From positions 1 to 64,000 of the forward strand of contig AJFK01000612.1 in NCBI GenBank assembly GCA_000467715.1: a DNA stretch of 64,000 nucleotides, given 5' to 3'. Shown here piece after piece: positions 1 to 62,062 of the stretch (position 1 is the stretch's first letter; every line of letters starts with the position of its first letter). This DNA is from Hysterium pulicare CBS 123377. Its lineage: Eukaryota; Ascomycota; Dothideomycetes; Hysteriales; Hysteriaceae. Position numbers and translations under genes: made by a program. The notes under the pieces are model-generated. The model was not told the DNA's origin and made no database searches. It saw only the letters and a list, made by a program, of their open reading frames with translations.

Positions 1-174
1 TTTAGGGGTAATAGAAAGGCTTACCGCAATTCAAGTGTATATTTGTTGCAGGTACCAGTCGATTCTTTCAATTTTCAACTTCCACCGATGTACTCACCGT
101 TCACGCTCAGTATTCTGACCAGACGCCTGAACCCACTGATGCCTGATTGACACAATCTCTCATTCTTTTCTAGA

Positions 175-1521
175 ATGACATCCGCCGTCGATCGTGCTCT
201 CGCCACGTACGAGATTCTTGAGAGTATTCTCGTCCAGCTCCAAGATACTCAAGAGATAATCCTCACTCAAAGGGTATGTCGCACATGGCGATCAATCATT
301 TCAAATTCCCTCGCTTTGCGGCGTGCAACTGGGTATGCACCGCAAGCAGATGATTTTCCCGGCTTCAAGAGACATCGAGTAATATCAGGGGAGTGGAGGC
401 TTCCGAATATAGTTACGAACGAAATACATTCGATGTTTGGGTGTGCAATCCCGTGTTCGAAAGGCTGGGTTTCAACAGAGACGCGAACGAGCCACTCGCC
501 ATTATGTTACCCGGGCTAAGAACTCGCATATGCTATGACTCCAGATCTTAAGCTGCTATGCTTGCAACTCAACCACCCTGTCGGCATATGGTAGTGGTGA
601 TAAACGCATGATAAGACCGAGACCGAGCATTTTTTCACCAACATTTCGATGCTACAATGTTCCTCAAGAAATTTTTAGTATTTGGATCGAAGTTTGCGTT
701 TCGTTACTGCTTCTTCCCTGCCCATTTGATCCATCGCTCCTATTGCTCACTTTTCTTTCCTTTGAATAGAGTCTGACAAACACTAGCCCGTATGTCTGCT
801 CAACCAACGCCGCCGCGATCCTAGTCGGCGATGCTATTTGCATCATTCATGAGTTTCAGTACAGAGATTGGGGCGATGGCGTCCGCGAACGCTTTCCATT
901 GCCTGTAACTGCCCACCCGCATGATACTTACGACACCGTATTCTCGTTCACATATCCAGCATCTGGAGGGGCGACAAATGTCTACGTGATTTTATTACAC
1001 CATTGGAGGACGATATCGATATCAGGGTAGCGCAAATAAAAGGAGATGAAACAACGGAACACGCATTCTCCTTACGCCGAATGACGCCCCCAAGAAATAC
1101 AAGAACTTTGGGGCCCAAGGACGGGTGGGAGTTTCGACATGAGCTTTTACATCCAGTTTCAGAAGGAAGCCACGATGACAATTTTCATACGGGCAACGAT
1201 GAAGATGCTACCAAAGAAGAAGGAAGCAGTGCTGTGCCAGTCAACACAAGATATCTCATCAAAGGCCCATTACTTATGGAGAAACACCACCAGTAGTGTG
1301 AGGGGATGCACCCAAGAGGTCTAGCCCAAAACAACATCGATATCCTCCCACGCTTCTCGGTTTCAAATATCTTTCGCGACTCGGCCAAGAGCTTTGCGAA
1401 ACGCTATGCCAGTGTCATGCACAATCCAAAGCACATCATAAAACTAATACGCCTGGCTCGCACGGGCTATATTCCTTCCCATCATCTTCGAAAATTCACT
1501 CTACAAGAAGCCCACAAATAG
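175..1521 (+). pseudogene. F-box protein gene, apparently fragmented
   Basis: The first 114 codons (175-519) encode an F-box-like N terminus. ETAELL-type residues appear as YEILESILVQL, followed by QRVCRTWRSII, the usual helix layout of an SCF substrate-receptor F-box. The frame then closes. Coding-like text continues in other frames: around 400-540 (CNPVFERLGF, PLAIMLPGLR), 768-1037 (including VFSFTYPASGGATNVYV) and 1306-1521 (including MHNPKHIIKLIRLARTGY). I could not join these with convincing short introns, so the locus looks decayed, or holds remains of two genes. F-box genes of this kind are abundant and fast-turning in Leotiomycetes. A functional multi-intron gene is the alternative. 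The F-box call is moderately firm; the extent is not. Confidence 0.45.
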
Positions 1522-1796: not shown

Positions 1797-3589
1797 TTAA
1801 GTAAAGTATCTCCACATCTTACTGTCCTCACCCTCACCCAACTCTCCTGTGCTCACGTCCTCTGGTCTGATCTTGACACCCTGCTCACGATCTCTCTTCC
1901 TATTCTCCATCTTCATCCATAGGCCCAGCCAAAGCGTAAAGCCGATACACGTGACATTGCAGGCTGCTGTAGCTACCAACGTCGGTATGTATTTTGGCGC
2001 ATAATCGGTTCTGAAGGTAGCCGCTGATAAGATACCTCCCAGATTCCCCAGACCCACAAGCAGACCTGTGTTAGCAGCCCGAGAATTTTCGTTGAAATTA
2101 TTGTTGTTGTGCCAGCTGTGTACGAGACAGGAAGGGATGTAAGCTCCAGATGCTAATAGGAAGCAGGCAAAATAGGCCACCCCTTTATTCTCCAAGACGT
2201 CGATGGTGGCGAGGATGATCAGTCCAATCAGAGAAACCGCGAGGGAAAAGACAATATGGAAAGTTCGCTCCCTGAACCAATCCGATGAAAAGGTGACGCA
2301 TAGCAAGACGACAAAGCCAACGGCGTTCGGTGCAACAGTCCACAAATTTGTCTTGATCACACTATATCCAAGCCTCTGTACTATCTGCGGTAGGAAATTG
2401 GAGGTCGTGGCGAAAGCGACTGGATACGTGAAACTGATCACGAGCCAGGGGAAGAACTTCCAATTGCTCCAAGTTTGGAAACACTCGCGTATGTTGAAGT
2501 CTGAATGCGTCATACTAGATGAGTCTCTTAGTGAACGAGCTTCGGCGGCAGCTTTTTCCGATGGGGAGAGGAACCAGGCGGAGGCAGGAGATGCTGGCAG
2601 CCAGAAGAAAGCTACGAAGGCGACGATAATGGTCATTCCGCCTTCAATGATAAATAGCCACTTCCATCCCTGGATGTGAGGGTCGTTGATTCGGAAAACA
2701 CCGTAGGAGATCAGACCGCTGAATGCGGCGGCCAGGAGCGCACTGCCAAAGTAGATGGCGATGCGGAATCCGAGTTCTCCGCGTGTGTAAAATAGGGTGA
2801 GGTAGAAGACGGTGCCTGCAAAGAAGCCTGCTTCGAATGTTCTCAGATGCTTGTTAGCATAGTTCTTTCTGACGAGAATGAAGGAGTATAAACGAATGGG
2901 AGAAATATACCCGAGGATCAACCTCACCACCAAAATACCAGCAAAATCTTTGGTTCCGCACTGGATAAGAGCCATTGCACCCCAGCAGAACATCACTGTC
3001 GTCAAGATGCATCAGCACTGTTAAAGTCTCTTCGAACACCAAGAATACTCACACGTCGGCAGCACGGTTCTCCCCGAGAAGCGCTTGGTCAATAGGTTCA
3101 GAGGTAGGTCGCACAGTCCAAATGGAACGTAGAAGAGCAAGATCAGGAGCGAATATTGCTCGCCCGTGAAATGAAGGTCTTTGTCCATGCCGTCCGTTTT
3201 GGCATTTCCGAGATTGCTCTAATAGGGGAAGGTCAGGATTGATGATTGAACAAAGTTGAGAGAGGGTATCATCCTACACGGTCAACGGAATTGAAGAAAT
3301 ACATCTGTAGAAATAATTAGACATATTATACTATGCGAGGGTTTTCGAAGCAGATTATCCATACCAATGAGAGAAACGGAAGAAGATAGAAATCCAACTT
3401 CCTTACTGCAATACACGTCAATTCACGTTTAACTAGAGGAGGTCGACGGAGATACTCACCGTATGATCTCTCTGCCGCTTTGTCAATATACGGTGTCGAT
3501 GTTCCGATGTCATGTTCGGACTCGGTAGGTGGTCCAGAAACTGGTTTGCTCTCATTGTGAAGGCGATGCTTCTCTGAATCGAAAGCCAT
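1797..3589 (-). CDS. MFS permease, Dal5/TNA1 (anion:cation symporter) family
   Basis: A plasma-membrane transporter of the allantoate/nicotinate permease family. The start is the ATG at 3589 (MAFDSEKH). Short introns split the N-terminal half: one begins at 3459, and another (about 69 nt, near 2910-2843) joins RLILG to TFEAGFFAG. After joining, family landmarks read in order: RKLDFYLLPFLSL (TM1), YFFNSVDR, SNLGNAKTDG, the FTGEQYSLLLILFYVPFGL helix, LTKRFSGR, FEAGFFAGTVFYLTLFY and the long C-terminal membrane half. Predicted length is about 490 aa with about 12 TM helices, normal for the family. Family members carry allantoate, nicotinate (yeast Tna1), pantothenate or biotin. The substrate cannot be read directly, but the neighbouring genes favour nicotinate or a related N-heterocycle. 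It could correspond to A. nidulans HxnP. Its promoter carries GATA motifs and a tandem repeat. Confidence 0.88.
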
Positions 3590-4308
3590 TCTGATAAGCA
3601 CGCTCGTGTTGATCCTTGGGCCTGAAGACAAATGCAAATGTGATGATAGATCGGAAAGACACCCCTTCGAGAAATCATAGAAAGGTGGATGCGAGGAATG
3701 TACTTATTCTTAGTCGATCAGTTCCGATCTCCCTTTCCCACGTGTGCTGTATTTCCGGCAAGCTCTCCGATTGATATTCTGTGGCGTTGACCCTCCATTT
3801 TGCTAAGTCCTACTTTTGCAATTTCGTAGCATAGCAGATCGATTCTAGGATTAGCTTGTGCCAAGATAGAAAGATGGAACGATGAGGTCGAGAGTGGGGG
3901 ATCGATACAAGCACTAAATTAGCCCTTGCAGTGTCGATAGGAAGTCGGCACACAGCTTAGTAAGGCAGAGAGACTAAGATAGAACAAGATACCTAAGATA
4001 TACCTAAGATATACCTTAGATATACTTTAGATTGAGGAGTTGAGGCTATCGTTTCCCGATAGACTACATTTTATCTAGCCCACTCCTAAACGGTGTCTTT
4101 CCCAGAAGATCTAGAACCGAAGCTCTGGATTGATCAAAGGGTGGCAAAGGTTGTTGAGACATCTCCCCAGCGTTGGTTACTAAAATGGCTTTTGGGTTGA
4201 TTCAGGTGATTGGATTGTTTGACATGCTGCTAATTATTCAAGGCTCGTGACGACACTGCGCTCTAAATATCCTCTACCTTCATTCATGCTTGAAAAGAGA
4301 AAATCATT
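3590..4308. promoter_or_regulatory. Promoter region of the Dal5-type permease, with GATA motifs
   Basis: About 720 nt separate the permease start from the 3' end of the next minus-strand gene. It contains HGATAR-type sequences (AGATAG at 3864-3869 and 3977-3982), the consensus bound by fungal nitrogen regulators of the AreA/NIT2 family. It also has an AT-rich tandem repeat at 3989-4032. No gene is seen. That the sites are functional is inference. Confidence 0.45.
3989..4032. repeat. Four tandem copies of an 11-bp unit
   Basis: Units at 3989-3999, 4000-4010, 4011-4021 and 4022-4032 follow the form ATACCTAAGAT. The first two are identical, the third differs at one position and the fourth at two. 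Each unit nearly contains its own inverted partner (CTTAGAT / ATCTAAG-like). It lies about 400-440 nt upstream of the permease start. An 11-bp period is close to one helical turn. Confidence 0.9.
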
Positions 4309-6509
4309 TCAAGCATCATTCAAAAACGATGCATAGTAGTCATCCATCCACTTTACAGCGCTCTTACCGCACTCCACGCTCCCTGTTGGCCAACGACGAA
4401 CCATGCCCACATATCCATCGGGTCTAACATTCAATACGGCGACTTCGTCCTTCGCCAGACCACCTAACCACTTATCCATACAAGTCTGCTTACGCGTGTC
4501 CTTTTCAGGAATGTCGTCTAGATAAAATGTCCATCTGCTAGCATTCAAGATGGGCGGCAGATCAGTGAATTCGACATCATTGCGGTTCATATCGGTAATT
4601 AAAGAGTAGGTGAAGACGCGACTGACGGCTGAATACCTCTCAGGACATACAAATTCATCAGTGAGTGCCGCGGGTGGTGGTTGGCGTGCGTATGACAAGT
4701 TTCCGGCAGTAATGACCCTGCCCACGTAGGAGGTCGATGATTGATGCATATTGCAGACTGTATCCAGGAATGGTTTTGCATCATGGAAATCGTGCACCAG
4801 GAAGTATATGCGAAATTGACCAAGAGCGGGAACATCGTTCTGTATGTCGACAGGGTTTGCGTCTATGAAGCGCGTAACCTTCGCAAGAGGAAGTAGACAG
4901 CCTGGTCTCGCGGCGCCGAGATCAGCTCCTTTTGAAGGGACATTGAGAATGTTGTTGTGGTATGTTGCACCGACTCCGGATATAAATGCGACATTTGTTT
5001 GGAAGTTCTTCGCTAAAGCATCGGGATCGCCTGCCGCAAAAGCATTTGCGTGCTCGTAGTCGAAATTGATCAGATCTTGGGCAATCTTTCTCCTCTCCTG
5101 CTCGTATGTTTCTAGGAGAGATGGTTTTGCTAGACCACGAACGGCAAAGTTAAGTTTCCAAGCAAGATTCCATGAGTCGTGTATCGATGTGTTCATCCCT
5201 TGTGCTGCTTTGGGGGAGTGTGTATGACTTGCCTATAGATTGTCAGTGAGGTTTTCTTTGGGGGAACGAAGGGAATCTCACATCTCCGGCAATAAACACT
5301 CGTCTCTCATCGTCGGTAAATTTACTGGCCACACGTTGACCTATTTGGTATCTACCAAACCATTCTAAATGCCATCAGAATGACTTCAGGATTACAACCA
5401 GTTTGGGGCCTGAACTTACCGACACTCTGCCAGCGAACGAAATATGGGTCCATTATCTCCTGAGCACGTTTCATGACAAAGTCCTGAGTAAGCTCATCCT
5501 GCGGCACAGTTTCTTTAGAATCTGATTTCAGTTCGATGTACAGCCGGGTCATGTTGCGTTCGCGAGGAATCATGAGGATTGATCCCAGTTTCTCTGAATG
5601 CACCACAACTTTGCTCCAAATATCTGGGAAGTCTGTGTCCAAAACTCCATCCAGAACTCCCCATATAGCGTCGTTCGAAGCTCCTACAGCCTTGGAATCT
5701 GGCAGTGATCGCCGGACTTGTGAATGAGCACCATCACAACCAATGAGATATCTCGCTCCCAGGGTCTTGCTGTTCTGATCAACGTTCATTTTGCAGTGGA
5801 CTTTCAAATGCCCCGTCTTTGAGGGTGTATCGTCATAGTTGACAAATGTGATATTCCTTTCGACCTCTACCCCTCGCTCCCTCAGGTCCTCAATGAAGAC
5901 AGACTCGACCATGCCCTGATGGACGAGCAGAATGTACGGATCGAGAAGATCAACGATCGGAGGGTAATGGACTTCGCGGGCAGTGCGATGTAACGATTTC
6001 GAGAGAGTAGATTTCTGGTAAGGAGCAGTCATAAGCTTTCTTGCTATCTCATGGTGTAGGATGGGCCTGATGACTTACCCAGAACGCAATGTCGTATATC
6101 CTCACCCCCTTCTGTAGCAAAGAATCTGCCAGTCTCATCTGCCGCAATGTCTCAATTGTCTTAGGTTGGATTCCGTCGGCACGTCCGGTGGATGTCTGAT
6201 CGGGTCTGTTGTCTACAATGGCAGTTTTTACTCCAAATCGTACAAGATTGAGACTACATCATTTCAGCTCCAACATGGAAAGAATAGAGGCTTCAATTAT
6301 ACACACGCCAATACAAGCCCGGCTGGGCCGGCTCCAACTATGACAACATCACTTTCGAACGACCCATGGTCACCGCAATTAGATTCTGCAGAGTTCGTCT
6401 GAATAGCATCGACGCCATTATGTTTGAGCGAATCGACCTGCAAGCCTGGAGACATTTCCCTGGATTCTGGAGGGGACCTTTGAGATGCAGTGCGCTTCAT
6501 GTTTCCCAA
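4309..6509 (-). CDS. FAD-dependent phenol 2-monooxygenase-like hydroxylase (HxnV-like)
   Basis: A flavoprotein aromatic hydroxylase of about 640 aa. Exon 1 (from 6509, or the second Met at 6500) ends in the Rossmann motif VVIVGAGPAGL. An intron of about 50 nt leads to NLVRFGVKTAIVDNRP and the substrate-loop region GRADGIQPKTIE. The next exon (from about 6032) carries YLIGCDGAHSQVRR, the NAD(P)H/FAD DG motif. A further short exon supplies FIAGDASHTHSPKAAQGMN, the second FAD-binding GD motif, and then DSWNLAWKL. The C-terminal 200 residues match the thioredoxin-like dimerisation domain of phenol hydroxylases. Proteins of this type hydroxylate phenols or, in A. nidulans HxnV, a dihydroxypyridine. 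It lies between the permease and a divergent amidase, which supports a pyridine-catabolic role, but a phenolic substrate is possible. Confidence 0.85.
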
Positions 6510-6944
6510 TAAGTGATTAGAACCACAGCATTAAAGTAGGGAGGGTTAGGATGGAAAATGGGGGTGTAGTCGGGTTTGCCAGTTGCAGACGAGTTGACGG
6601 AGCTCCATGAGGAGTTGGCAGCTATTTGTTACGTCAGTTAGATTGATCAATGCATTTTTAGAAGATAATATCAGTTCAATGCTATGGCTCCCTCATACTG
6701 AACTATAATGAGTAGGTTTGGATGCTGAACTGTGTGGAGTGATGACGAGGAGAGCTGCATCTTTTCGGTCCCCCACTCTCGGTCAGTTCTCGGAGTTAAA
6801 GCACGTTATCCGTAGATATCAACAGCAGCTCGACATCAGCACCCCTTACTAATCAATCAGCGACCGTTAGTACATCTTGTGAATTGTGAAAATGGGATAT
6901 CGGAGTCCATCCCTTACTTTTCATATTCTTCCAAAATCTGGAAG
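6510..6944. promoter_or_regulatory. Shared divergent promoter between monooxygenase and amidase genes
   Basis: The two start codons face away from each other across about 435 nt. One AGATAA (HGATAR) site is visible at 6663-6668, plus a TTATC (reverse GATAA) at 6806-6810. Nothing coding is evident. The arrangement would allow co-induction of the two enzymes. Confidence 0.5.
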
Positions 6945-8874
6945 ATGGGTAGTACTCCACGACCGGATTGGACAGACGTCGTCAAGCAAAAACGCCGAGC
7001 ACGAAATGCGGCCATAGAGCGACATCTAGCTACGCAAACTGTATCAAGTGCTTCAAAAGAGCTCACCAAGATTGAAACTGTCGAACACATTATCAAAGCC
7101 ATCTCCTCCGGGTCTGTGACAGCAAAGGAGCTCTGTTTTGCCTTCATCAGCGGGTAATCACTGCCTGACCGCCTTATCTGCGAAGAGAGCTCACAGATTT
7201 GCAGGGCTATTGAAGCTCACCAACGTGTAACTGTTCTGGAAATTCTTTATTGGAGTATTAGCTAACCTACGCAGACAAATTGGCACATCCCTCCGCCTTG
7301 AAGTACTTGATGCGGACTAGTACTAACGTATATCAGTCTTACCGAGATTCTATTTGAAGATGCCGCCAAATGCGCTGAGGAGCTGGACCAGTACTTCAAG
7401 GAGCATGGCAAAGTTATCGGCCCTCTACACGGAGTTCCTATGACCCTCAAGGACCAATTTGATGTGAAAGGCTATGACAGCACCCTCGGATATGTAGGAA
7501 GAGCGTTCCATCCAGCCGCTGAAGACTGCGTCTTGGTAGAATTGTTGAAGAAAATGGGCGCTCTCATAATTGCCAAGACGAATGTACCTCAGAGCATTAT
7601 GGTTCGTATAAGGCGATCTTCGCCCCCTCGGCACATGGCTGAAACGAACACAGTGGTGCGAGACCGAAAACCCTCTATGGGGTTTAACGGTACACCCGAA
7701 CAATCCTCAATTCACTCCTGGCGGTTCTACAGGTGGAGAGGGTACGACGCTATCGATGCAAGGCTCTGTCGTTGGATGGGGAACGGATATTGGTGGTTCT
7801 ATCCGTATTCCGTCACATATGCTAGGTCTTTATGGCTTGAAACCGAGCGTATGTCTACTGGAGCATACGCAATCACTGCTTTGCTGACACTGTATAGAGC
7901 ACTCGGTTGCCTTATCAAGGAGTATCCGTATCCACAGAAGGCCAAGAGCACGTTCCATCTGTGATAGGTCCTCTGGCTCGCAGTCTCGAAGCTCTCACAA
8001 CAACTACGCAAGCAGTCATCAATGCGGCTCCATGGAATCTGGATCCTAAATGCTGCCCATTGCCGTGGAGAAACGATGTATATTTGGAAATCCAATCACG
8101 CCCGTTAGTTATTGGATTGATGGCCGATGATGGTGTCGTTAGGGTTCACCCGCCGGTGGCACGAGTGCTGGAAGAACTAGCCACGAAGCTAAGAGACGCG
8201 GGACATGAAATCATACCTTGGGAGCCAGGAAACCTTCACCAAGAGTGTATTGAGATTATGGTATGGCTTTTCATATTTTCATGCCTCGTTATTCTCTACT
8301 TCTTTTTGACGAATACTGACTAGAACGTCAGGATCAATACTACACAGCTGACGGTGGCGAAGACATCAGAAGAGAAGTCGAAGCCGGAGGCGAACCGTTC
8401 ATACCTCACGTGGAAGCTCTCGTTAACCGCGGCAAGCCAATCTCGGTATACTCGTACTGGCAGCTAAATAAAAGTAAACTTGCAGCGCAGAAGCGGTTTC
8501 TAGACAAATGGAACTTCACCGTATCTCCAACATCCGGACAGAAGCTTGATGTTCTACTAACTCCAGTCATGCCGCATTCCGCAGTCCCACACCGGAAATG
8601 TCGATGGGTGGGCTATACTAAGGTATTCAACTTCGTCGATTATTCGGCTATCGTCCTGCCTGCTGGCCAGGTTTCGAAGAATCTTGATCCGAGGCCGGAA
8701 GATAGGCCTGCCTACCAGCCAAGAAACGAGTTAGATAAATGGAACTGGGATCTCTACGACCTGGATAGTATGGATGGTATGCCAGTTGGTGTTCAAATTG
8801 TAGCTCGAAGGCTTGAAGAAGAGAAGGTGTTGGGAATTGGCAAGGTTTTGGATGGTTTACTTCATATGGAATGA
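6945..8874 (+). CDS. Amidase-signature family hydrolase (acetamidase/HxnN-like)
   Basis: Start is the ATG at 6945 (MGSTPRPDW). Several short introns interrupt the gene. An in-frame path joins FISG to AIEAHQHKLAHPSAL and LTEILFEDA, then PLHGVPMTLKDQFDVKG. A further intron before WCETENPLWG restores FTPGGSTGGEG, and GTDIGGSIRIPSHMLGLYGLKPS follows. The amidase catalytic triad is therefore present: Lys in the LKDQFD motif, cis-Ser in GGSTGGEG and nucleophile Ser in DIGGSIRIP. The C terminus contains MDGMPVGVQIVARRLEEEKVL, as in AmdS-type amidases, and total length is about 560 aa. These enzymes hydrolyse primary amides to acid and ammonia. The neighbours suggest the last, ammonia-releasing step of N-heterocycle breakdown. 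A general acetamidase is the alternative. Confidence 0.87.
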
Positions 8875-9482
8875 GACAAACATACAGCTAATGAAGACTT
8901 TTTATGGCTTCCGGCTCTTCAGTATAGATCAAGTTAATATGCTACTCCCTGAATTATCTCTAGGTTAGAAACTTAATTTAAAACCTTTGATCAATTCATT
9001 GTCGGATAGCAAAGCTGTGGTTGGTAGGTACAGATCCTCCGAAAACGATGTATACTAACACCCATGTTGACAATCTAATCATCTTATGGAAACGAACACT
9101 ACCTTCATGATTGAGAACACATAAACCCCTGCTCGACTTTTTGAATTGACCACTCCCCTCCGTAAGCATGAAGGCTGGTAACCTTGGCCTTGGAATCACA
9201 GCCATGCATAATGCGGGAACTAATGCAAGCACCACGATAAGTACCCGCAGATAAAACGGCGTCATCATACTTTCAAAAGCTCCCCCACTCTTGGAATCCA
9301 TCAATCAACTCGCGTGTAACGCTGCGTCTAATCTCAAGCTTTAGCTCAAGCAGGAGCGGGGTTGTGGAGCTTCTTTCCAAAGTTTGCCCTGTGCAAACAA
9401 TCATCCCACATCCGCTTTCGTCATACATCGCGAAGTCTGGGAATAATCTCTAGTAGAGCCAATTGAAAGGTAATTGGGAAAT
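8875..9482. promoter_or_regulatory. Intergenic spacer upstream of the NodB-fold hydrolase
   Basis: About 600 nt between two plus-strand genes. One minus-strand ORF (8996-9304) with a hydrophobic stretch is present but has no supporting features. Otherwise I see nothing specific here. Confidence 0.4.
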
Positions 9483-10578
9483 ATGGGCAAGAAGAGAGTG
9501 CTTGTTAGCTATGGAGTCGATATCGATGCTGTTGCGGGGTGGTTGGGTAGTTACGGAGGAGAGGATTCGACGAGCGATATCAGTCGAGGTGAGCCTTGCA
9601 GCTGGTATTGCGACTCACAAGACTAAGATTGGGATTTTAGGTCTTTGGGCTGGTACGGTAGGCACTCAGCGACTCCTCAAGCTCTTCGACAAGTACAAGA
9701 TTAAAGCAACATGGTTTATTCCTGGTTAGTTCCTTTCTTGATCTCGAGCTCCTCGTATTGATAAAGTGAAGGACACTCCCTCGAAACATTCCCAGAAGAC
9801 TGCGCTGCCGTGCGCGATGCAGGACACGAGATTGGCCTTCATGGATATTCCCACGAGAACCCTGTTGATATGACCTTCGAGCAACAGCGTGATGTTTTGG
9901 ACAAAACGTACAAGATGCTCACAGACTTCTGCGGCAAGCCTCCTCGAGGAAGTGTGGCACCATGGTGGGAAACAAGCAAAGAGGGATGTGAATTGCTTCT
10001 CAGCTACGGCATTGAATATGACCACAGCATGAGCCATGAAGATCACAGATGCTATTGGCTGCGTGCTGGAGATGAATGGACCAAAATTGACTATAAGAAG
10101 AAAGCTGAGGAATGGATGAAGCCTCTTGTAAAGGGCAAGGAGACAGGTCTCGTGGAAATTCCGGGCAGTTGGTATATCGATGATCTACCACCGATGATGT
10201 TCATAAAGAAAGCGCCAAACAGTCATGGGTTTGTGAATCCGAGAGACGTCGAAGCTATCTGGATGGATCACTTTGACTACTTCTATCGCGAATATGACGA
10301 GTTCGTCTTTCCGATGACAATTCATCCAGATGTCAGTGGGAGACCGCACGTTATTCTGATGCATGAGAGGTATTGTTTCATACTCCCTTTAAGATTATTA
10401 ACTGATTCTGATATTCTATAGGATCATCGAGCATATCAACAAACACGAAGGAGTCGAATGGGTTACAATGGAGCAAATGTGCGACGAATTCAAGAGCAAG
10501 AACAAACCGCCAGAAGGCGCCATGATGCCAGCGCCACCAGGGGAGATTCTCAAGAAGCAGCAAGAAGGGAAGGCCTAA
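9483..10578 (+). CDS. NodB-fold polysaccharide-deacetylase-like hydrolase (cyclic imidase, HxnM-like)
   Basis: The gene starts at the ATG at 9483 ([16 protein letters not shown]). Introns after ...DISRG (GTGAGC...TTTTAG), after TWFIPG and before [13 protein letters not shown] give a protein of about 310 aa. NodB-homology landmarks are the metal-binding Asp in [14 protein letters not shown], the His pair in [22 protein letters not shown], and the C-terminal [19 protein letters not shown]. No signal peptide is visible, so it is probably cytoplasmic and unlikely to act on cell-wall chitin. Proteins of this subgroup resemble Helicobacter PgdA-like and allantoinase PuuE-like hydrolases; HxnM of the nicotinate pathway is a cyclic-imide hydrolase of this fold. 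The position beside an amidase fits ring opening of a cyclic imide followed by deamidation. Substrate is inferred. Confidence 0.82.
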
Positions 10579-11007
10579 TTGTCTTCTCCAATTCATACAT
10601 TAATGCTAGAAATTCAATGAATTCATATCTCACGTAGCTATCCTGATTTAGGGAAAGAACTAATCCCTGAACAGAAGCTTGAGCTTTGACCTTGCATATG
10701 TCCACCCCTCCTTCGACATCCCACTTCTGATGCATCACCACCACTCACGCCTCATTGTCCATCCAATGCCGATCGCATCTGCCCTACCGCCGGCGCGCTT
10801 CCGCTCAGTTACCTGAGCTAATCGATGGTCGCAGCCGCCTCTGCGTTGCGTGCGTGGTAAACGTGGCGGTAGGATGAAGCTCTCATCACCCTTTCTCTGA
10901 AGATGTCAAAACTCCCATATACAAGCGAATTGACCTTCCCTCTCTATATTTATTCTCCTGTTTCCATGAGATATATGTGAAGGACCAATCTCACTTCTCA
11001 CAACACA
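10579..11007. promoter_or_regulatory. Promoter of the salicylate-hydroxylase-like gene
   Basis: About 430 nt between two plus-strand genes. A TATA-like CTATATTTATT lies around 10945, some 60 nt before the start codon, in a CT-rich context typical of fungal core promoters. No gene is seen. Confidence 0.4.
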
Positions 11008-12551
11008 ATGGTTCCGCAACCGCCAAAAGTGCTGCAGGAGCTCCATCGCGATGACTCCAGCAAATTAGACGTATGCTCCGCTTTATATTCATACTTCCGA
11101 CGTTGATTCAGCCATCTCTCAATCCCTTCCACTAACACACCCTACCAGATCATAATCGTAGGAGCTGGTCTCGGAGGTCTCGGCGCCGCAATCTCCCTCG
11201 CCCTCGCCGGCCACAAAATCCACATTCTTGAAGGCGCTTCACAAATTTCAGAAGTCGGCGCCGGCATCCAATGTCTACCAAACTCCTCTCGCGTGCTCAT
11301 ATCCTGGGGCATGGAAGAAATGCTCGCACCGTATGCCACCCGTCCCAAACAATGCAATATGATTGGATGGAAGGGGGATGCCATATCTACCATGAATTTC
11401 CATGAATATCAGAAAGAGTGCGGAACACCCTTTTGGGATTTCCATAGGGCAAATCTTCATATGTGTCTTCTGGAGAGAGCGAAGCAGTTAGGGGCGACGG
11501 TTGAGGTGAATGCCAGGGTCGTGGATGTGGTTGTTAGTTCTGATGGGAGGACATCGGATGCTGTGTTGAGTAATGGGAGTAAGCGGACAGCGGATCTAAT
11601 TGTGGGCGCGGATGGTATTCATTCGAGATGTAGGGAGATTTTATTAGGAAAAGAAGACCCGCCCATCCTGACAGGAGATCTGGCGTACAGACTACTCCTG
11701 AAAACGGAGGAAATGATGAAGGACCCCGAATTGCGAGGCTTTGTAGAAGATCCTCAGGTCAACTACTGGATGGGGCCAGACGCTCATGCTGGTATGCGCC
11801 CGTTACTCAAACCTGGTATTCAGGTAAACTAACTAAATTAACAGTAAACTACGTCCTCCGCGGCGGCGAACTCTTCAATATGGTCCTACTCGTCCCCGAC
11901 GACATGCCCGCCGGCGCCACCACCCTCACCGGCAACGTCTCAGAAATGCGCGCCCTCTACAAAGACTGGGACCCCCGCATCCCCAAGCTCCTCAACCTCT
12001 GCGAATCCGTCTACAAATGGCGATTATGCATCCGACCCGGCCTCGACCCCTCCTGGTCTCACTCTTCGGCCACCTTCACCATGCTCGGCGACGCCGCTCA
12101 TGCGACACTCCCTTACCTCGCCTCTGGCGCTGGCATGAGTCTGGAGGACGGTCATGTGTTGGGACTGTGTCTAGCTAGGCTTACATCGAAAGAGCCCGCG
12201 CAGAAAAAATTGGCGCTCGATGTATATGAGCAATGTCGACGGTTACGTACAGAACGTGTGGTTCAGCGGGGAAATGTGCAGCAGGATCTCTATCATCTGC
12301 ACGACGGGGCCGAGCAGCGGGAACGGGATAGGTTATTTCGAGAATTTGGGAAGGTTGAAGGTAAGGCGAATGAAGCGGAGTTGAAGGCGAGGGGTTTGGT
12401 TGATGGGACGGATCCCTTACCTTGGAGGTGGGGTGGAGTGGGGAAGTGGTTGCTTACCTATGACTGTGAGAAGGATGTTGAAGAGCGGTGGCCGAAGAAA
12501 GGGTGGAGTGAAGGGAGTACGCAGGCGGTTAGGGAAAGGGCAGTTTTATAA
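11008..12551 (+). CDS. FAD-dependent salicylate/6-hydroxynicotinate hydroxylase-like monooxygenase (HxnX-like)
   Basis: Three exons begin at the ATG at 11008. The first intron sits right before the dinucleotide-binding strand IIIVGAGLGGLGAAISLALAG, and a second, short intron joins GPDAHA to VNYVLRGGELFNMV. Further family signatures are EVGAGIQCLPNSSRVL, LIVGADGIHSRCR (DG motif) and TMLGDAAHATLPYLASGAGMS (GD motif). Length is about 470 aa, normal for class A flavin monooxygenases. Relatives decarboxylate and hydroxylate salicylate, or convert 6-hydroxynicotinate to 2,5-dihydroxypyridine (NicC, HxnX). In this cluster the nicotinate reading is favoured, but sequence alone does not separate it from salicylate hydroxylase. 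The third exon begins with a notably GC-rich stretch (11870-12060). Confidence 0.85.
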
Positions 12552-13391: not shown

Positions 13392-16300
13392 TTACGCAAG
13401 CTCAAAAACTTGCACTTCCGCTCTCGTAGGTCTAGTACTCGGAGTCTCGTTTTGAGGTAGAGGAGGCCCTCCGCTCGTATCTCCAGACATGATATACTGG
13501 TACATATAAAGCGCGCTCCGACAACCCTTGCACTGCAGATCCGTGGTCGATTTCCCAGATGCACTGCACTCATCACAAACAACGATTGCATCTTCAGGAT
13601 CTGGAATAGGAGGAAGGTCGGGCGGAAGAGGAGCTTCTCGCCTCGGCGGAGAAGGAGAACGCGGCGTCGGTACTGAGGGTATTGTATTGGATGTAGTATT
13701 GAGGGTTGGCGGGACGGGTGGAGGTGGTCTGGTAGGTGATTGAGGAATTCTAGGAGAGCGAGGCGGTGAACTTTCTTGGTTATTTGGTGACCGAACACCG
13801 AATGATGGTAAAGGCGAAACGTATTGATACGAGTAAGAGGGTGACGAGATGGCTTGAGATGGCAACGGCGATACAAATCTGTTTGATGGTGATGCAGACG
13901 TAGGTACGGGTGGAACCGGAGGGACTACAGGCTTCCATTGGGGGCTTGACCCAGAACGTGGGTCCAAGGTGAATCGACTGGCGTGGGATTCCCGACCTGG
14001 CGGCTGTGGTTCATCATACAAATCATCGGTGTCAGAACGCGATGGCGGCATTGAGATCGGATCAGGGTTGTCGTCTTCAGACTGAGGAGTAGAATCCTGC
14101 TTGGGGGTACTATATGGTGTTGGATGCTTTGCTGGCGGTGACCTCTGGAAAGCAGGTAATTCTTGCCTTTCCTGGGGAGCAGAATACGCAGAATATGCCG
14201 CAAGGCGGGGAGATAGAGCTTGTGGAGGAGTTTCTTGGTCATCTGCTTTTTCAGCGGGGGAGTCTTGCATCTGTGATGGTGTAGCAAAGGGCCGTTGAGC
14301 CATAGCAGGGGAAACTTGAGACTCTTGCTCGCGGACTTCCGCGTCATGAAGTAACATTAGCACAGATTGCTTTCGGAATTCGTCAATGCTAGCATTCTGC
14401 GCAAACCCAATCCTTGAAGCAGTAAGATTAAAGCCAAAGCTACCGGGAGTGTCCAGCCCAGAGATCGATGCTCCAGAGGCTAGTAGGTATTGAACGATCT
14501 CGGGATGACCAAAATAAGCCGCGTATCTGAGTGGTTGCCAATTTGATTCATCTCTTTGGCGCACAGAAGCACCCCGGGCGACCAGCTCTTGAACGACGGA
14601 CAGATGGCCATTTTTAGCGGCAATACAGAGTGGAGAATCCTCGTGCGATGGCCCTTTCGCATATCTCGTCCGCATTGCTGCACCGGCACTAAGTAGCAAC
14701 CGAACGACTTCAATATTGCCCTCCGCACTCGCTATGCAAAGGGGTCGGTCTCCGATCCCGTCTCTTGATTCAATTTGTGCGCCTCTTCGCAGAAGTAGGT
14801 CAACGATAGAAGAAGTCCCTTGCAATGTGGCATAGTGTATAGCTCTCTTCCCAAGCCGACTCTCTGCTTCAACCATCGCACCGTGCCCCAATAGAAGCTG
14901 CAGTATGTCTGAATTTGTTCCCATGGCTGCATAGTGAAGGGGCCGCATAGAATTCTGGCACTGTGCTTCCACTGAAGCTCCTCTACGTAAAAGGACTTCG
15001 GCTGTGGCAAAGCTATCAGCCATCACTGCTAGATGCAACGGCGTTCTCCCATCACTTGTTCGAGGATCAACAGGGACTTTCTTTTCCAGAAGCAAGTCTA
15101 CAACATCGGAATGTCCATTGTAGCTAGCCCAGTGCAAGGGTGTCATTCCACCGTCGCCTTTATGCTTGAGAGACGCCTTTCTTTGTAGGAGCAGTCTAAC
15201 AACATCCGTAGCTCCAGAATGGCATGCAGTGGTCAACGGAGACATAGACTCCTTTCCTAAGGCCTCAATGTCTGCCTTCCTAGTAAGAAGAATATCGACG
15301 ATTCGATCATGACCCCCTTCTGCTGCATGATGAATAGCTGCCATGAAATTGCCATCCTTAGCTTCGATATCTGCTCTGTGATTGATGAGGAGATTCACCA
15401 CATCCTCATCCCCAACTCTCGCCGCTGAATGAAGGGCGGTCAGATTCTTCGCATCCCTGGCATTGACTTTTGCACGTCTCCGGAGAAGAAGCTCGACAAC
15501 TTCCACATGACCGTTATCAGCAGCGAGGCGCAATGGAGTTTTCTTTTCAGGACCAAAGGCATCGACATCTGCTTGCTCTTGAAGCAAGTTTTCCACCACC
15601 CTGTAATGACCTCTTGTTGCAGCTAGATGTAGCGGGGACATAGACAGGGAATCCCTCGTATTTGGATTGGCTCCGTGTTGCAGCAGGATTGAAACGACAT
15701 CATCGTTCCCACAGTGGCTGGCGACGGCGAGCGCGGTCCTTTTCGTCCGTTCATGCTTCGCCTCAATATTTACTCGTTGGTCAAGCAATTCTTCGATTTC
15801 GATACCAGACCCCATTTGAGCAGCTTGGACGAGAGCTGGAGCGTTACGACCGTCTTGTGAAGTGAGGTCAATACTCCTATGGATATCGGTATCGGAATGG
15901 CGCCTTCCTCTGCGCCGTCCAGAGTTATTACCAAACGAGTCTTGTGACAGAACTGGAGAAAGATTGGCAGAGCTCCGACTAATGAATGAAGTCAAGAACG
16001 ATCTCTTCTTCTCAACCCCTTTCGTCCTGAGTGGTATGTTCAAACCTGGAAGATACGAATCTGATGCGGAAGTGATGTGCACATGCGGCCTCGTCTGCTG
16101 TCGAGGGGTGTCTGCTGGATCAGATGCTACAGACCGCTCATATGGTCGTGGTCTCTCCCATTTACGAGTAGTTCGAACGTCAATAGGAGAAAGACGATCA
16201 GAACCCTCAGAACCATCAACGAAGCCCGAATCGTCGTCTCGACTAGGTAGCCTATTGAAGCCATTTGGGCTGATAGGACTTCTGTCGCCACTCTGATCTC

Positions 16301-17061
16301 CAGTTCTATAGATTCTGTTTTCGGCGCTTCTGGATCGCTGATGCGCCATTGCTTGACGATAAACCCTGGTATTTATAAGACCGTTGTCCATTTCAAATTC
16401 AGTGCTTCCGATTGTAGAGTTTGTGTGGCTAAGGATAGATGGTGGCCGGCTTTCAGAGGCTCGAGAAGAAGTTGCGCGTAGGGTAGATGTATCATCTGCG
16501 ACCTTTTGCACAATTTGGCGACTTCTAGGTTCTCGAAGTAGAGCTGTCTGTTCTGCAGCTGTTCGACTACGGAAGACTTGTTAGCAGAGCTATATGGTGC
16601 GCGCGGTCCAAGAAACAAACATACCACTGGACAGCTTGAAGCAAGAGTTGGAGCGCTTGAACTTGAGAGTCCAATCGTCCTTGATGGTCCTTCATACTGG
16701 TCTCATTCCAAACATAGCGCATCTTCATCGTACGATGCTGACCTGCCAATGAGACTTTGACTAAATCCGCGACTTCTTCTGCCATTGCTTCTAGAGCCTC
16801 TTTGCACCCTTCAAAGGAAATATCGAACGCATCAACCAGATCACGCTCGCGGAGTGAGCCCTGAAGGTTGAGGTCAGTCCAATCTTGGATCTGGATGAGC
16901 GCTGCTTTGATCGCCGTCAACTGCCGTATAAGCTGCCGAATAGACATTTCTGCATCCGCATATTTCTCGCGCAAGTCGCAAAGGTTCTTCACGGTCTTCG
17001 TTATAGTTCCGATGATGCCACCGGCAGCGGCAACCCCACCTACGATTGAGAGAGGATCCAT
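13392..17061 (-). CDS. Ankyrin-repeat protein with HeLo/PigL_N-like N terminus and C-terminal zinc-ribbon-like motif
   Basis: Exon 1 runs 17061-16625, a 58-nt intron follows (16624-16567) and exon 2 runs 16566-13392, giving 1203 aa. The N terminus (MDPLSIVGGVAAAGGIIG, then a helical region with coiled-coil tendency) resembles the N-terminal domain of fungal STAND/NLR proteins. A Ser/Arg-rich linker follows. About 14 ankyrin repeats come next (roughly residues 380-860; SPLHLAATRG, TPLHWASYNG and TPLHLAVMAD are clear copies). A long Pro/Ser-rich segment leads to a CDEC...CKGC pair (4 Cys, 17-19 residues apart) close to the end. No NACHT or NB-ARC domain is present between the N-terminal domain and the repeats. 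The family often takes part in incompatibility or immune-like signalling; the role of this protein is unknown. Confidence 0.85.
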
Positions 17062-28260: not shown

Positions 28261-29640
28261 ATGCCACCTCCCGCTATCATCGCTCCATCCATCCTATCCG
28301 CCGACTTCGCTGAACTCGGAAGGGCATGCTCAGACACCATAAGCCAAGGGGCCGATTGGCTTCATGTACAGTGTTCCTGCGTGTCTGGCAGGTACCTTTG
28401 CCACTGACACTCGAAAGGTGGACATAATGGATGGCCATTTCGTGCCCAATATGACCTTCGGCGCCCCAGTGGTCACTAAGATACGTTCGCACGTGGAGCG
28501 CCCTACCGGCGCCTACGGAAAGGGAACATTCGATTGCCATATGATGATAGCAGAGGTAAACAAGACTCATATATTGATTCATGAAGGTTCCACGACTCCA
28601 CGCGCTTTATCGATTGCTATGGCCACTTGCATTGCCGCCCTCCCCATCCTATACACTTTCCTCTCGCTTCCCCCACACTTTAATATATTAAGAACGTACC
28701 TGGCTAACGTGGGTATTGACATAGCCCAAAAGATGGGTTCGAGACTTCCAGAAAGCTGGCTGCGACCTCTATTGCTTCCACTACGAAGCCGCCGTCGACT
28801 CCACTGCCGCCGAGACACCTTCGGAGACATCTACATCCAGAACATCGCCTAAGGAACTCATAAAATATATTCATGACCTTGGCATGCAAGCAGGAATCGC
28901 AATAAAACCAAAAACGCCCGTCGATGTATTATGGGAAATACTAGAGAACCCCAATGAAGCGGAAAGACCGGATGTGAGTTGCGAATGATTCTGATTCACG
29001 CACACCTTCATCCAAGTCAGTGGAGAGATTAAAGGAACCATGATTCCTCTCAGCCCTGCACCAGGCATGGAAGGCCGTAAAAGGGCTCAGCTCTCGGGGA
29101 GTCTAGGGGAGTCCCGTGTGATATCGCGGGCGCGTCGAGAACACGGCGCTTAGGGAACCGCGAGCAATACGTATAGCCACCACCGACCTTGAACATTCTC
29201 CTTGGAATATGTCATTGTCGCGTGCTCACGTCGCGTTTTCCCGGGCTGCCCTTTCAGTACTCCCTTGGCAACCGCCTTCAGGTCTCCTCATCCTACAATC
29301 TCCCCTTCGCACTTGCATGAACGACCTTCCATGCAAGTCTCATATCCTTATCTTGACTAATGCTTCGATCTAGATGGTTCTCGTCATGACGGTCGAACCC
29401 GGCTTCGGCGGCCAATCGTTCATGGCCTCTGAACTTCCGAAAGTCTCGGCCCTACGGTCGAAGTATCCGGACCTGCCCATCGAAGTCGACGGTGGTCTGT
29501 CAGAGAACACGATCGACCAAGCCGCAGATGCGGGCGCCAATGTCATTGTGGCAGGATCAGCTGTGTTCGGCGCGAAGGACCCTGCTGAGGTGATTTCGAA
29601 ATTACGACATGCAGTGGAGTCACGGAGGGGAAAGCTGTGA
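28261..29640 (+). CDS. RPE1: Ribulose-phosphate 3-epimerase
   Basis: Four exons were read by eye: 28261-28365, 28418-28555, 28725-28973 and 29374-29640. The product (about 252 aa) starts [16 protein letters not shown] (Ser and Asp of the active site). It continues with [15 protein letters not shown] (metal/catalytic His-Asp region), [11 protein letters not shown] (second metal ligands), [14 protein letters not shown] (phosphate-loop region) and [12 protein letters not shown] / [10 protein letters not shown]. It interconverts ribulose-5-phosphate and xylulose-5-phosphate in the cytosolic pentose phosphate pathway. All catalytic landmarks are present. The insert [20 protein letters not shown] is typical of fungal homologues. 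The third intron is 400 nt, far longer than others in this window. Confidence 0.95.
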
Positions 29641-60818: not shown

Positions 60819-62062
60819 ATGTCGGCGGCTACTTCAATTGATTTGATAAATAGAGCTCCAGAGGTAGGTTGCAGCCCTTACTATCTCAATGAACGAATAG
60901 AACGATCAGCTCACGAGACCTCGACCTAGGGAACTAAATTATGGGTATGAGGACCCCAAAACTTATTTCACAGCTTCAATTGATCTCTAGATAGCTCCTC
61001 CACGTTGGTAACCTCGAATGTGATGCAGGGTTCTTCTTCCGCGCAGTACGTCCACCCTTTCATAACCCGTGTCATAATTCTTTGAATACAGACTTCACTA
61101 TTCCTGCACCCTCAAGAATAGAAAGCTATGCGAACGACTCCTGTCAAGTCCACTGCGGGCTAAATACTCCTTTATAATCGCGTTACCAAGCTCAAACGGT
61201 GTACGTGATCAGCTGGAAGAGTCATCACGAGCTTGATACGTAGCCTAGACTCCTGCAATTCCTTATACCTAGTATGATCTCTCCGTCTAGATTCTCCCCT
61301 AACAAAATCAATGCTCAGGGCAACACATCCACGCTCTCGAATCCGAACCCCCCAATCCGCGAACGCCGCAAGTTAATCCAACTCTGCATCCTCATTGAAC
61401 ACCCAACCGAAGGCCTCATCCTCTACGAAACCGGCTCCGGGAAAGACTACCCTGAAGTATGGGGCGCACCCGTCAACGACATCTTCGCGCGAGTCGACTA
61501 TGAAGACGACCAAGAACTAGACGTGCAGATCAAGAAGACCGGGCACGACATCAAAGACATAAAGATGGTGATTATCGGACATCTGCACCTGGATCATGCC
61601 GGGGGGTTAGAGTATTTCAGGAAGACAGATGTGCCAGTCTACGTGCATGAGCTGGAGCTCAAACATGCGTTTTACTCCGTGGCGACGAAGAGTGATTTGG
61701 GGGTTTACTTGCCGCATTATCTCACGTTCGATATCAATTGGCAGTCGTTCAAGGGATCCTTCTTGGAAATTGCCCCTGGGTTGAATGTCCATCTTGCCGC
61801 TGGGCATACGCCTGGGCTCTGTATCCTGCAGGTCAACATGCCGAAGTCTGGGACGTGGATTTTCACGAGCGATATGTATCATGTTTGGGAGAACTACGAG
61901 CAGAGCGTGCCGCAGGGGTGGTTGGCGAGGGATCATGATGCGTGGGTGTCGAGTAATCAGATGATCCATATGCTGCAGAAGAGGACAAAGGCAAAGATGG
62001 TGTTTGGACACTGTAAAGATACGGTAAAGGGATTAAAGATGGCGCCGGAGGCGTATGAGTAG
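60819..62062 (+). CDS. AHL-lactonase-like metallo-beta-lactamase fold hydrolase
   Basis: I place the start at ATG 60819 (MSAATSIDLINRAPE). Exon 1 runs 60819-60863, exon 2 60995-61045 (LLHVGNLECDAGFFFRA), then a longer intron, and exon 3 begins at 61319 (GNTSTLSNPNPPIRERRKL) in frame to 62062. The ATG at 61274 lies in the intron and is not the start. The fold has HLHLDH (H-x-H-x-D-H metal motif), AGHTPG (metal His), FTSDMYH (bridging Asp) and MVFGHCKDT (last metal His), plus the Tyr/Asp spacing of N-acyl homoserine lactonases. The family also holds lactonases acting on other lactones. A role in quorum-signal or lactone breakdown is possible; substrate is not readable. Length about 280 aa. Confidence 0.85.

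What the first reader, a model, noticed from the sequence alone, without database searches (positions are those of the whole stretch)
1797..12551. Five-gene cluster matching part of the fungal nicotinate (hxn) catabolic gene set
The sequence shows, side by side, a Dal5/TNA1-family permease, a phenol-2-monooxygenase-like flavoprotein, an amidase-signature hydrolase with an intact Lys/cis-Ser/Ser triad, a cytoplasmic NodB-fold hydrolase and a salicylate/6-hydroxynicotinate-hydroxylase-like flavoprotein. From knowledge of Aspergillus nidulans, these correspond to HxnP (or HxnZ), HxnV, HxnN (amidase), HxnM (cyclic-imide hydrolase) and HxnX. No other common pathway combines these five classes. The oxidoreductase genes hxnS/T/Y/W and the regulator hxnR are not in this window. 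That it is a rearranged hxn cluster is inference, but the combination is specific.
Basis: partly seen in the sequence, partly recalled or inferred. Interest (0 to 1): 0.78.

Follow-up and report, generated by a model that had tools for sequence, protein, structure and literature searches.

The report
Partial fungal nicotinate-breakdown gene cluster
A short block of five fungal genes looks like part of the known pathway by which moulds such as Aspergillus nidulans break down vitamin B3 (nicotinate) for nitrogen, in a gene order that fits the known family of such clusters, so it is a sensible but not surprising find.

Summary
The five genes are real: hand-spliced models read through without internal stops, fall in the stated families and are close in length to A. 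nidulans HxnP/V/N/M/X. Beyond gene class, two tests favour the hxn reading. The phenol-2-monooxygenase-like and amidase genes are divergent, the hxnV-hxnN couple reported as conserved in Pezizomycotina. The X protein carries 8 of 8 published HxnX active-site residues, against 5 or 6 of 8 in three phenolic-type hydroxylases, though only three positions discriminate. V carries 5 of 6 HxnV residues, but so does a 3-hydroxybenzoate hydroxylase. Against: X lacks the C-terminal PTS1 reported as conserved in HxnX; its closest solved relative is a 4-hydroxybenzoate enzyme; the amidase model needs a GC donor; no hxnW/R/S/T/Y was found in the window. No genome is held and no A. nidulans Hxn sequence could be compared, so orthology was not tested. 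Most likely the block imports a 6-hydroxynicotinate-like pyridine, hydroxylates it twice, opens the imide ring and deamidates it, with the middle redox steps encoded elsewhere. New member of a known kind; low to moderate interest.

The parts
1797..3589 (-). HxnP-like MFS permease, 497 aa, exons 3460-3589, 3365-3405, 3278-3304, 3053-3218, 2911-2995, 1797-2841
   Evidence: spliced model; Pfam MFS_1 E 1.8e-35; only solved relatives at E up to 0.001 are two D-galactonate transporter sequences, best E 2.1e-06
3590..4308 (.). region upstream of the permease with 8 HGATAR (AreA/GATA-type) sites
   Evidence: 8 observed; mean 1.55 and 0 of 1014 overlapping same-length windows from 12.6 kb on reach 8; 4 of 500 mononucleotide shuffles reach it. 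One of 12 motif/region tests
4309..6500 (-). HxnV-like FAD monooxygenase, 656 aa, exons 6307-6500, 6079-6253, 5420-6014, 5282-5364, 4309-5232
   Evidence: Pfam; best NCBIfam model PRK08294 E 3.7e-105, below its curated cut-off; 5 of 6 published HxnV active-site residues
6501..6944 (.). 444 bp shared upstream region of the divergent hxnV-like/hxnN-like pair
   Evidence: gene models; divergent hxnV-hxnN couple described as conserved in PMC8478523
6945..8874 (+). HxnN-like amidase-signature hydrolase, 534 aa, exons 6945-7153, 7205-7226, 7275-7282 (8-nt microexon, followed by a GC donor), 7337-7601, 7654-7848, 7898-8260, 8332-8874
   Evidence: Pfam Amidase E 2.7e-97; fatty-acid amide hydrolases among the best solved relatives; triad K118/S193/S217; donor problem
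9483..10578 (+). HxnM-like NodB-fold, cyclic-imide-hydrolase-type protein, 314 aa, exons 9483-9588, 9641-9724, 9772-10369, 10422-10578
   Evidence: HpPgdA 3qbu 448.5 bits, 184 of 287 aligned residues identical
11008..12551 (+). HxnX-like FAD monooxygenase of the decarboxylating-hydroxylase type, 470 aa, exons 11008-11070, 11149-11791, 11845-12551; C-terminus AVL, no PTS1
   Evidence: PDB matches; 8 of 8 published HxnX active-site residues; no PTS1 form among 19 alternative splice pairs

Best explanation
The block is a rearranged, partial hxn-type cluster for catabolism of a hydroxylated pyridine acid, most likely 6-hydroxynicotinate (6-NA). The permease brings in the pyridine. X replaces the carboxyl group by hydroxyl (6-NA to 2,5-dihydroxypyridine). 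V adds a second hydroxyl (to 2,3,6-trihydroxypyridine). Ring reduction and alcohol oxidation (the HxnT and HxnW steps) are done by enzymes encoded elsewhere. M opens the cyclic imide hydrolytically and N removes the amide nitrogen as ammonium. Shown here: the five gene models, their families, catalytic residues and gene order. Inferred from the A. nidulans work (PMC9304392): every substrate, the order of steps and the regulation.
For: Five matching classes side by side. Divergent V(-)/N(+) pair, the hxnV-hxnN couple that PMC8478523 calls conserved across Pezizomycotina classes. X protein: Q62, V225, H234, V236, Y238, V249, L250, L251 equal HxnX Q59, V223, H232, V234, Y236, V247, L248, L249 at 8 of 8 positions (Q-to-H spacing 172 versus 173, residues from PMC9304392); 8gsm matches 6, 8x38 matches 6, 8r2t matches 5 with the gap of the alignment, NicC 5eow 3 by the paper's own pairing (totals counted by eye). 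V protein: D91, K258, L270, I272, Y282 equal HxnV D65, K231, L243, I245, Y255. M is 64% identical to HpPgdA, the closest solved homologue that PMC9304392 names for HxnM. A cyclic-imide-hydrolase type plus an amidase beside two flavin hydroxylases points to a nitrogen ring (inference). GATA sites are enriched upstream of the permease, as nitrogen control would predict.
Against: X ends in AVL with no PTS1, and no alternative 3' splice form among 19 gives one, whereas PMC9304392 states that the PTS1 is conserved in Pezizomycotina HxnX. X is much closer to the 4-hydroxybenzoate enzyme 8gsm (352 bits) than to NicC (154 bits). Five of the eight HxnX positions are the same in all three phenolic-type enzymes compared, so only three discriminate. 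The five matching V residues are also those of the 3-hydroxybenzoate hydroxylase MHBH according to PMC9304392, so they do not separate HxnV from it. No hxnW, hxnR, hxnS, hxnT or hxnY was found in the window. HxnM relatives are widespread: paralogues in all investigated dikarya (PMC8478523) and 57-68% identical proteins in the 80 bacterial and archaeal loci kept of 102. The amidase model needs a GC donor. Predicted HxnR sites are near background except three GHGGGG between N and M.
Confidence: 0.65

Rival explanations
1. A catabolic cluster for a different nitrogen ring or imide (for example another hydroxypyridine acid) assembled from hxn-like enzymes: X and V hydroxylate it, M and N open and deamidate it.
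For: Missing PTS1 in X, no hxnW or hxnR found in the window, and X nearer to other decarboxylating hydroxylases than to NicC allow a shifted substrate.
Against: 8 of 8 HxnX active-site residues match; the V-N divergent couple is the hxn arrangement.
Confidence: 0.16
2. A phenolic-acid funnel: X turns 4-hydroxybenzoate or vanillate into a hydroquinone and V hydroxylates that further, with the amidase and NodB genes as unrelated neighbours.
For: Best solved relatives of X are 4-hydroxybenzoate and vanillate decarboxylating enzymes; best of V is a phenol 2-monooxygenase, 8r2u; the V pocket residues equal those of MHBH at 5 of 6 positions.
Against: No ring-cleavage dioxygenase turned up in the ORFs scanned; M and N have no role in such a route (inference); at the three discriminating positions X equals HxnX; the V-N couple is an hxn arrangement.
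Confidence: 0.1
3. A relict: remains of a larger hxn cluster that is decaying after loss or separation of the other hxn genes, with the amidase already impaired.
For: Non-GT donor at the amidase microexon; no PTS1 on X; only five of the eleven genes found; PMC8478523 describes partial cluster loss and hxn pseudogenes.
Against: All five reading frames are otherwise intact with catalytic residues kept.
Confidence: 0.08

Closest known systems
Aspergillus nidulans hxn regulon (three clusters, 11 genes; PMC8478523, PMC9304392)
   Same: Same five protein classes, similar lengths, HxnX pocket residues 8 of 8 and HxnV residues 5 of 6, HpPgdA-like M, FAAH-like N.
   Different: In A. nidulans these five are split over clusters 1/VI, 2/VI and 3/I and accompanied by hxnR/S/T/W/Y/Z; here the five are contiguous, X lacks PTS1, and the hxnR/S/T/W/Y types were not found in the window.
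Cyphellophora europaea 11-gene hxn cluster (PMC8478523)
   Same: hxnP, V, N, M and X inside one cluster; divergent hxnV-hxnN couple.
   Different: There hxnW pairs divergently with hxnM; here M is followed directly by X on the same strand and no SDR gene was found.
Decarboxylating 4-hydroxybenzoate and vanillate hydroxylases (PDB 8gsm, 8x38)
   Same: Closest solved relatives of X; shared His/Tyr substrate motif and five of the eight HxnX positions.
   Different: Two of the eight HxnX pocket residues differ in each; by their PDB names they act on phenolic acids.

Membership tests
hxn nicotinate cluster | Clustered genes of the HxnP/V/N/M/X classes | tested here: met
hxn nicotinate cluster | Divergent hxnV-hxnN couple (PMC8478523) | tested here: met
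   V on - (4309-6500), N on + (6945-8874), 444 bp between
hxn nicotinate cluster | Divergent hxnM-hxnW couple (PMC8478523; not universal, e.g. not in Talaromyces or most Aspergillus) | tested here: not met
   M is in tandem with X; no SDR found in the window
hxn nicotinate cluster | HxnR regulator in the regulon | tested here: inconclusive
   no fungal-trans domain in the ORFs scanned and only small or unrelated C2H2 hits; rest of the genome not held
hxn nicotinate cluster | hxnS, hxnT, hxnW, hxnY, hxnZ elsewhere in the genome | not testable with these tools
   no genome held
hxn nicotinate cluster | Co-induction by a 6-NA metabolite, ammonium repression | not testable with these tools
   motif counts only: of 12 motif/region tests, GATA sites before P and GHGGGG between N and M stand out against other windows, the other ten do not
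HxnX | Published active-site residues Q59, V223, H232, V234, Y236, V247, L248, L249 | tested here: met
   8 of 8; five of them are shared by the three phenolic-type enzymes compared
HxnX | C-terminal PTS1, stated as conserved in Pezizomycotina HxnX (PMC9304392) | tested here: not met
   C-terminus AVL; 0 of 19 alternative splice pairs give a PTS1
HxnX | Clade membership in a phylogeny with A. nidulans HxnX | not testable with these tools
   I found no held collection of fungal genomes or of A. nidulans Hxn sequences
HxnV | Published residues D65, I126, K231, L243, I245, Y255 | tested here: met
   5 of 6 identical, I126 position is Leu at either offset but gapped in the 2dkh alignment; MHBH has the same five, so not specific
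HxnM | HpPgdA-like, cyclic-imide-hydrolase-type NodB fold | tested here: met
   3qbu 448.5 bits over residues 4-290; the family is much wider than hxn clusters
HxnN | FAAH-like amidase with conserved triad | tested here: met
   triad kept; residue after the cis-Ser is Thr, and the gene model needs a GC donor
HxnP | TNA1-related MFS permease | tested here: inconclusive
   MFS_1 only; TNA1 not compared

The most novel reading that the evidence does not exclude
The five genes are a chemically complete, shortened route rather than a fragment: M hydrolyses the imide-like keto tautomer of 2,3,6-trihydroxypyridine directly to alpha-ketoglutaramate and N deamidates it to alpha-ketoglutarate, so HxnT and HxnW are not needed. 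This would converge on the C-N ring opening of 2,3,6-trihydroxypyridine known from Arthrobacter and Rhodococcus (there by a polyketide-cyclase-like enzyme; PMC9304392, PMC6214936), with X working in the cytosol.
Probability: 0.07. Interest if true: 0.6.

Novelty: new member of a known kind. Interest (0 to 1): 0.3.

Why it matters
It adds one gene order to the catalogue of hxn clusters: permease, then the divergent V-N couple, then M and X in tandem, without hxnW between (whether this order is already drawn in the published supplementary figures I could not see). If X truly lacks peroxisomal targeting, it bears on whether the peroxisomal location of the 6-NA step is essential. If the five genes suffice on their own, a shorter eukaryotic pyridine route would exist.

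Tried and rejected
A simple codon-usage gene finder failed on the short exons and was replaced by hand splicing from open frames. A search of bacterial and archaeal genomes with M (102 relatives, best 80 kept) gave no linked pathway: tblastn of the five window proteins at E up to 1e-5 against those 80 loci, which are 3.2 to 16.9 kb long, found no X-, V- or P-like gene and a weak amidase (24-36% identity) in 7 of 80. A loose PTS1-like pattern gave 38 splice forms, of which 20 were printed, all ending CRI and all needing introns of 120 nt or more against 47-78 nt in the five models; the stricter scan of 19 donor/acceptor pairs gave none. Predicted HxnR sites: with mononucleotide shuffles the relaxed GNGGDG motif looked enriched between V and N and between N and M (4 and 6 of 500 shuffles), but not against other windows (9% and 13%). 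Paper searches for the 4-hydroxybenzoate enzyme: two gave no paper, one gave 11 that I saw only as a listing. Structure prediction was not used, because spliced proteins are not contiguous in the window. An earlier count said that a tandem repeat supplies the GATA sites; that is wrong: the eight sites listed lie outside about 3985-4035.

Papers: PMC8478523 parts 1-5 of 7 read and searched; PMC9304392 parts 1-4 of 7 read; PMC7842363, PMC5746545 and PMC6214936 passages only; others seen as listings with abstract starts. Supplements could not be read, so figures S5A/S5B of PMC8478523 were not seen.
Full report
The window is taken as fungal from its gene structure (short GT-AG introns) and neighbours such as PX/DUF3818, ARS2, mitochondrial carrier and Tim17-family proteins; the species is unknown. 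No whole genome is held for it, and I found no held collection of fungal sequence, so direct comparison with A. nidulans Hxn proteins was not possible. The tests rest on gene models, profile libraries, solved structures and residues printed in the literature.

Observation. Five genes lie between 1797 and 12551. Hand-spliced models give a 497-aa MFS permease (-), a 656-aa FAD monooxygenase with a phenol-hydroxylase dimerisation domain (-), a 534-aa amidase (+), a 314-aa NodB-fold hydrolase (+) and a 470-aa FAD monooxygenase (+). Pfam agrees. The best NCBIfam models of V and X are PRK08294 (phenol 2-monooxygenase) and PRK08163, both below their curated cut-offs; PMC8478523 Table 1 gives PRK08294 for HxnV and its footnote lists PRK08163. 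Lengths are close to the published A. nidulans ones (P 491, V 620, N 543, M 307, X 461).

Gene order. V and N are divergent with 444 bp between them. PMC8478523 section 2.3 reports divergent hxnV-hxnN and hxnM-hxnW couples as conserved across classes of Pezizomycotina, though not in Aspergillus or Talaromyces. The first couple is present here. The second is not: M is followed in tandem by X, and no SDR-type gene was found in the window.

Active sites. PMC9304392 prints eight HxnX positions. All eight residues occur in X at matching spacing: Q62, V225, H234, V236, Y238, V249, L250, L251. The 4-hydroxybenzoate enzyme 8gsm differs at two (I and A), the vanillate enzyme 8x38 at two (M and M), 8r2t at three using the gap of the alignment, and NicC 5eow at five by the paper's pairing. 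Five of the eight positions are identical in all three phenolic-type enzymes, so the discrimination rests on three positions: supportive, not proof. For HxnV five of six printed residues are identical in V; the Asp is one residue off a fixed offset, so there is a one-residue insertion, and the I126 position is Leu but gapped in the 2dkh alignment. The same five residues are those of the 3-hydroxybenzoate hydroxylase MHBH, so this test does not separate the two. M is 184 of 287 identical to HpPgdA, the homologue named for HxnM. N keeps K118, S193 and S217; the residue after the cis-Ser is Thr.

Results against. X ends in AVL. No PTS1 form arises among 19 alternative splice pairs, although PMC9304392 says the PTS1 is conserved in Pezizomycotina HxnX. 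X is nearest to decarboxylating phenolic-acid hydroxylases among solved structures (352 bits for 8gsm, 154 for NicC). M has paralogues in all investigated dikarya (PMC8478523) and 57-68% identical relatives in the 80 bacterial and archaeal loci kept of 102, so it is not diagnostic alone. For N, 15 enumerated models with GT donors only keep the frame but none keeps the AIEAHQ or TNC segment (up to three introns between 7060 and 7337, later exons fixed). A GC donor after an 8-nt microexon does, so either this is a GC-AG intron or the gene is impaired.

Surroundings. On the left, an F-box-like piece lies at 151-519, and the window ends 1.8 kb left of the permease. On the right an ankyrin-repeat ORF spans 13392-16580. 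Pfam on 20 ORFs from 13.4 to 63.1 kb and on 7 further pieces, i.e. 23 of the 59 ORFs listed plus four pieces left of the cluster, and six-frame motif scans with recalled patterns found no xanthine-dehydrogenase, old-yellow-enzyme, SDR, 2-oxoglutarate-oxygenase or HxnR-like gene. Genes in short exons could have been missed, and hxnZ-type transporters were not looked for specially.

Regulation. Of 12 motif-by-region tests against other windows, two stand out: 8 HGATAR sites upstream of P (0 of 1014 overlapping windows reach this) and three GHGGGG sites between N and M (0.9% of 1016 windows). The other ten do not. This fits nitrogen control of the permease but is weak.

Mechanism. By analogy with A. 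nidulans (PMC9304392): uptake of 6-hydroxynicotinate, X to 2,5-dihydroxypyridine, V to 2,3,6-trihydroxypyridine, reduction and oxidation by genes not seen here, M ring opening, N deamidation. The substrates are inferred. A bolder, untested option is that M acts directly on 2,3,6-trihydroxypyridine, giving alpha-ketoglutaramate as in the bacterial routes summarised in PMC9304392 and PMC6214936; the five genes would then be a complete route from 6-NA.

Verdict. The hxn interpretation is the best reading at about 0.65, with X called HxnX-like rather than filed as HxnX because one stated feature was tested and not met. The kind is known: PMC8478523 defines it, and the Figure 6 legend of PMC7842363 also describes five additional genes recurrently clustered with the first six hxn genes.

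Noticed in passing
7275-7336: 8-nt amidase microexon followed by an intron with a GC donor (GCACAT) and a TACTAAC branch-like sequence; no GT-only model enumerated keeps the conserved segment.
   Followed up: partly
13392-16580 (-): Large ankyrin-repeat ORF forming the right neighbour of the cluster.
   Followed up: no
151-519 (+): F-box-like piece near the left edge, Pfam F-box-like E 6.4e-06; rest of the gene not modelled.
   Followed up: no
28343-28852 (+): ORF matching only positions 27-71 of the ribulose-phosphate 3-epimerase profile; neighbouring exons not modelled.
   Followed up: no
3985-4035: Short tandem repeat of a CCTAAGATATA-like unit upstream of the permease gene (read).
   Followed up: no
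61244-62062 (+): Metallo-beta-lactamase-fold ORF (Pfam Lactamase_B E 2.4e-15), lactonase-like by eye.
   Followed up: no
L001-L080: HxnM relatives 57-68% identical in Helicobacter, Campylobacter, Rubrobacter, Geodermatophilus, Selenomonadales and Thaumarchaeota records among others, with no X-, V- or P-like gene found in those loci.
   Followed up: partly
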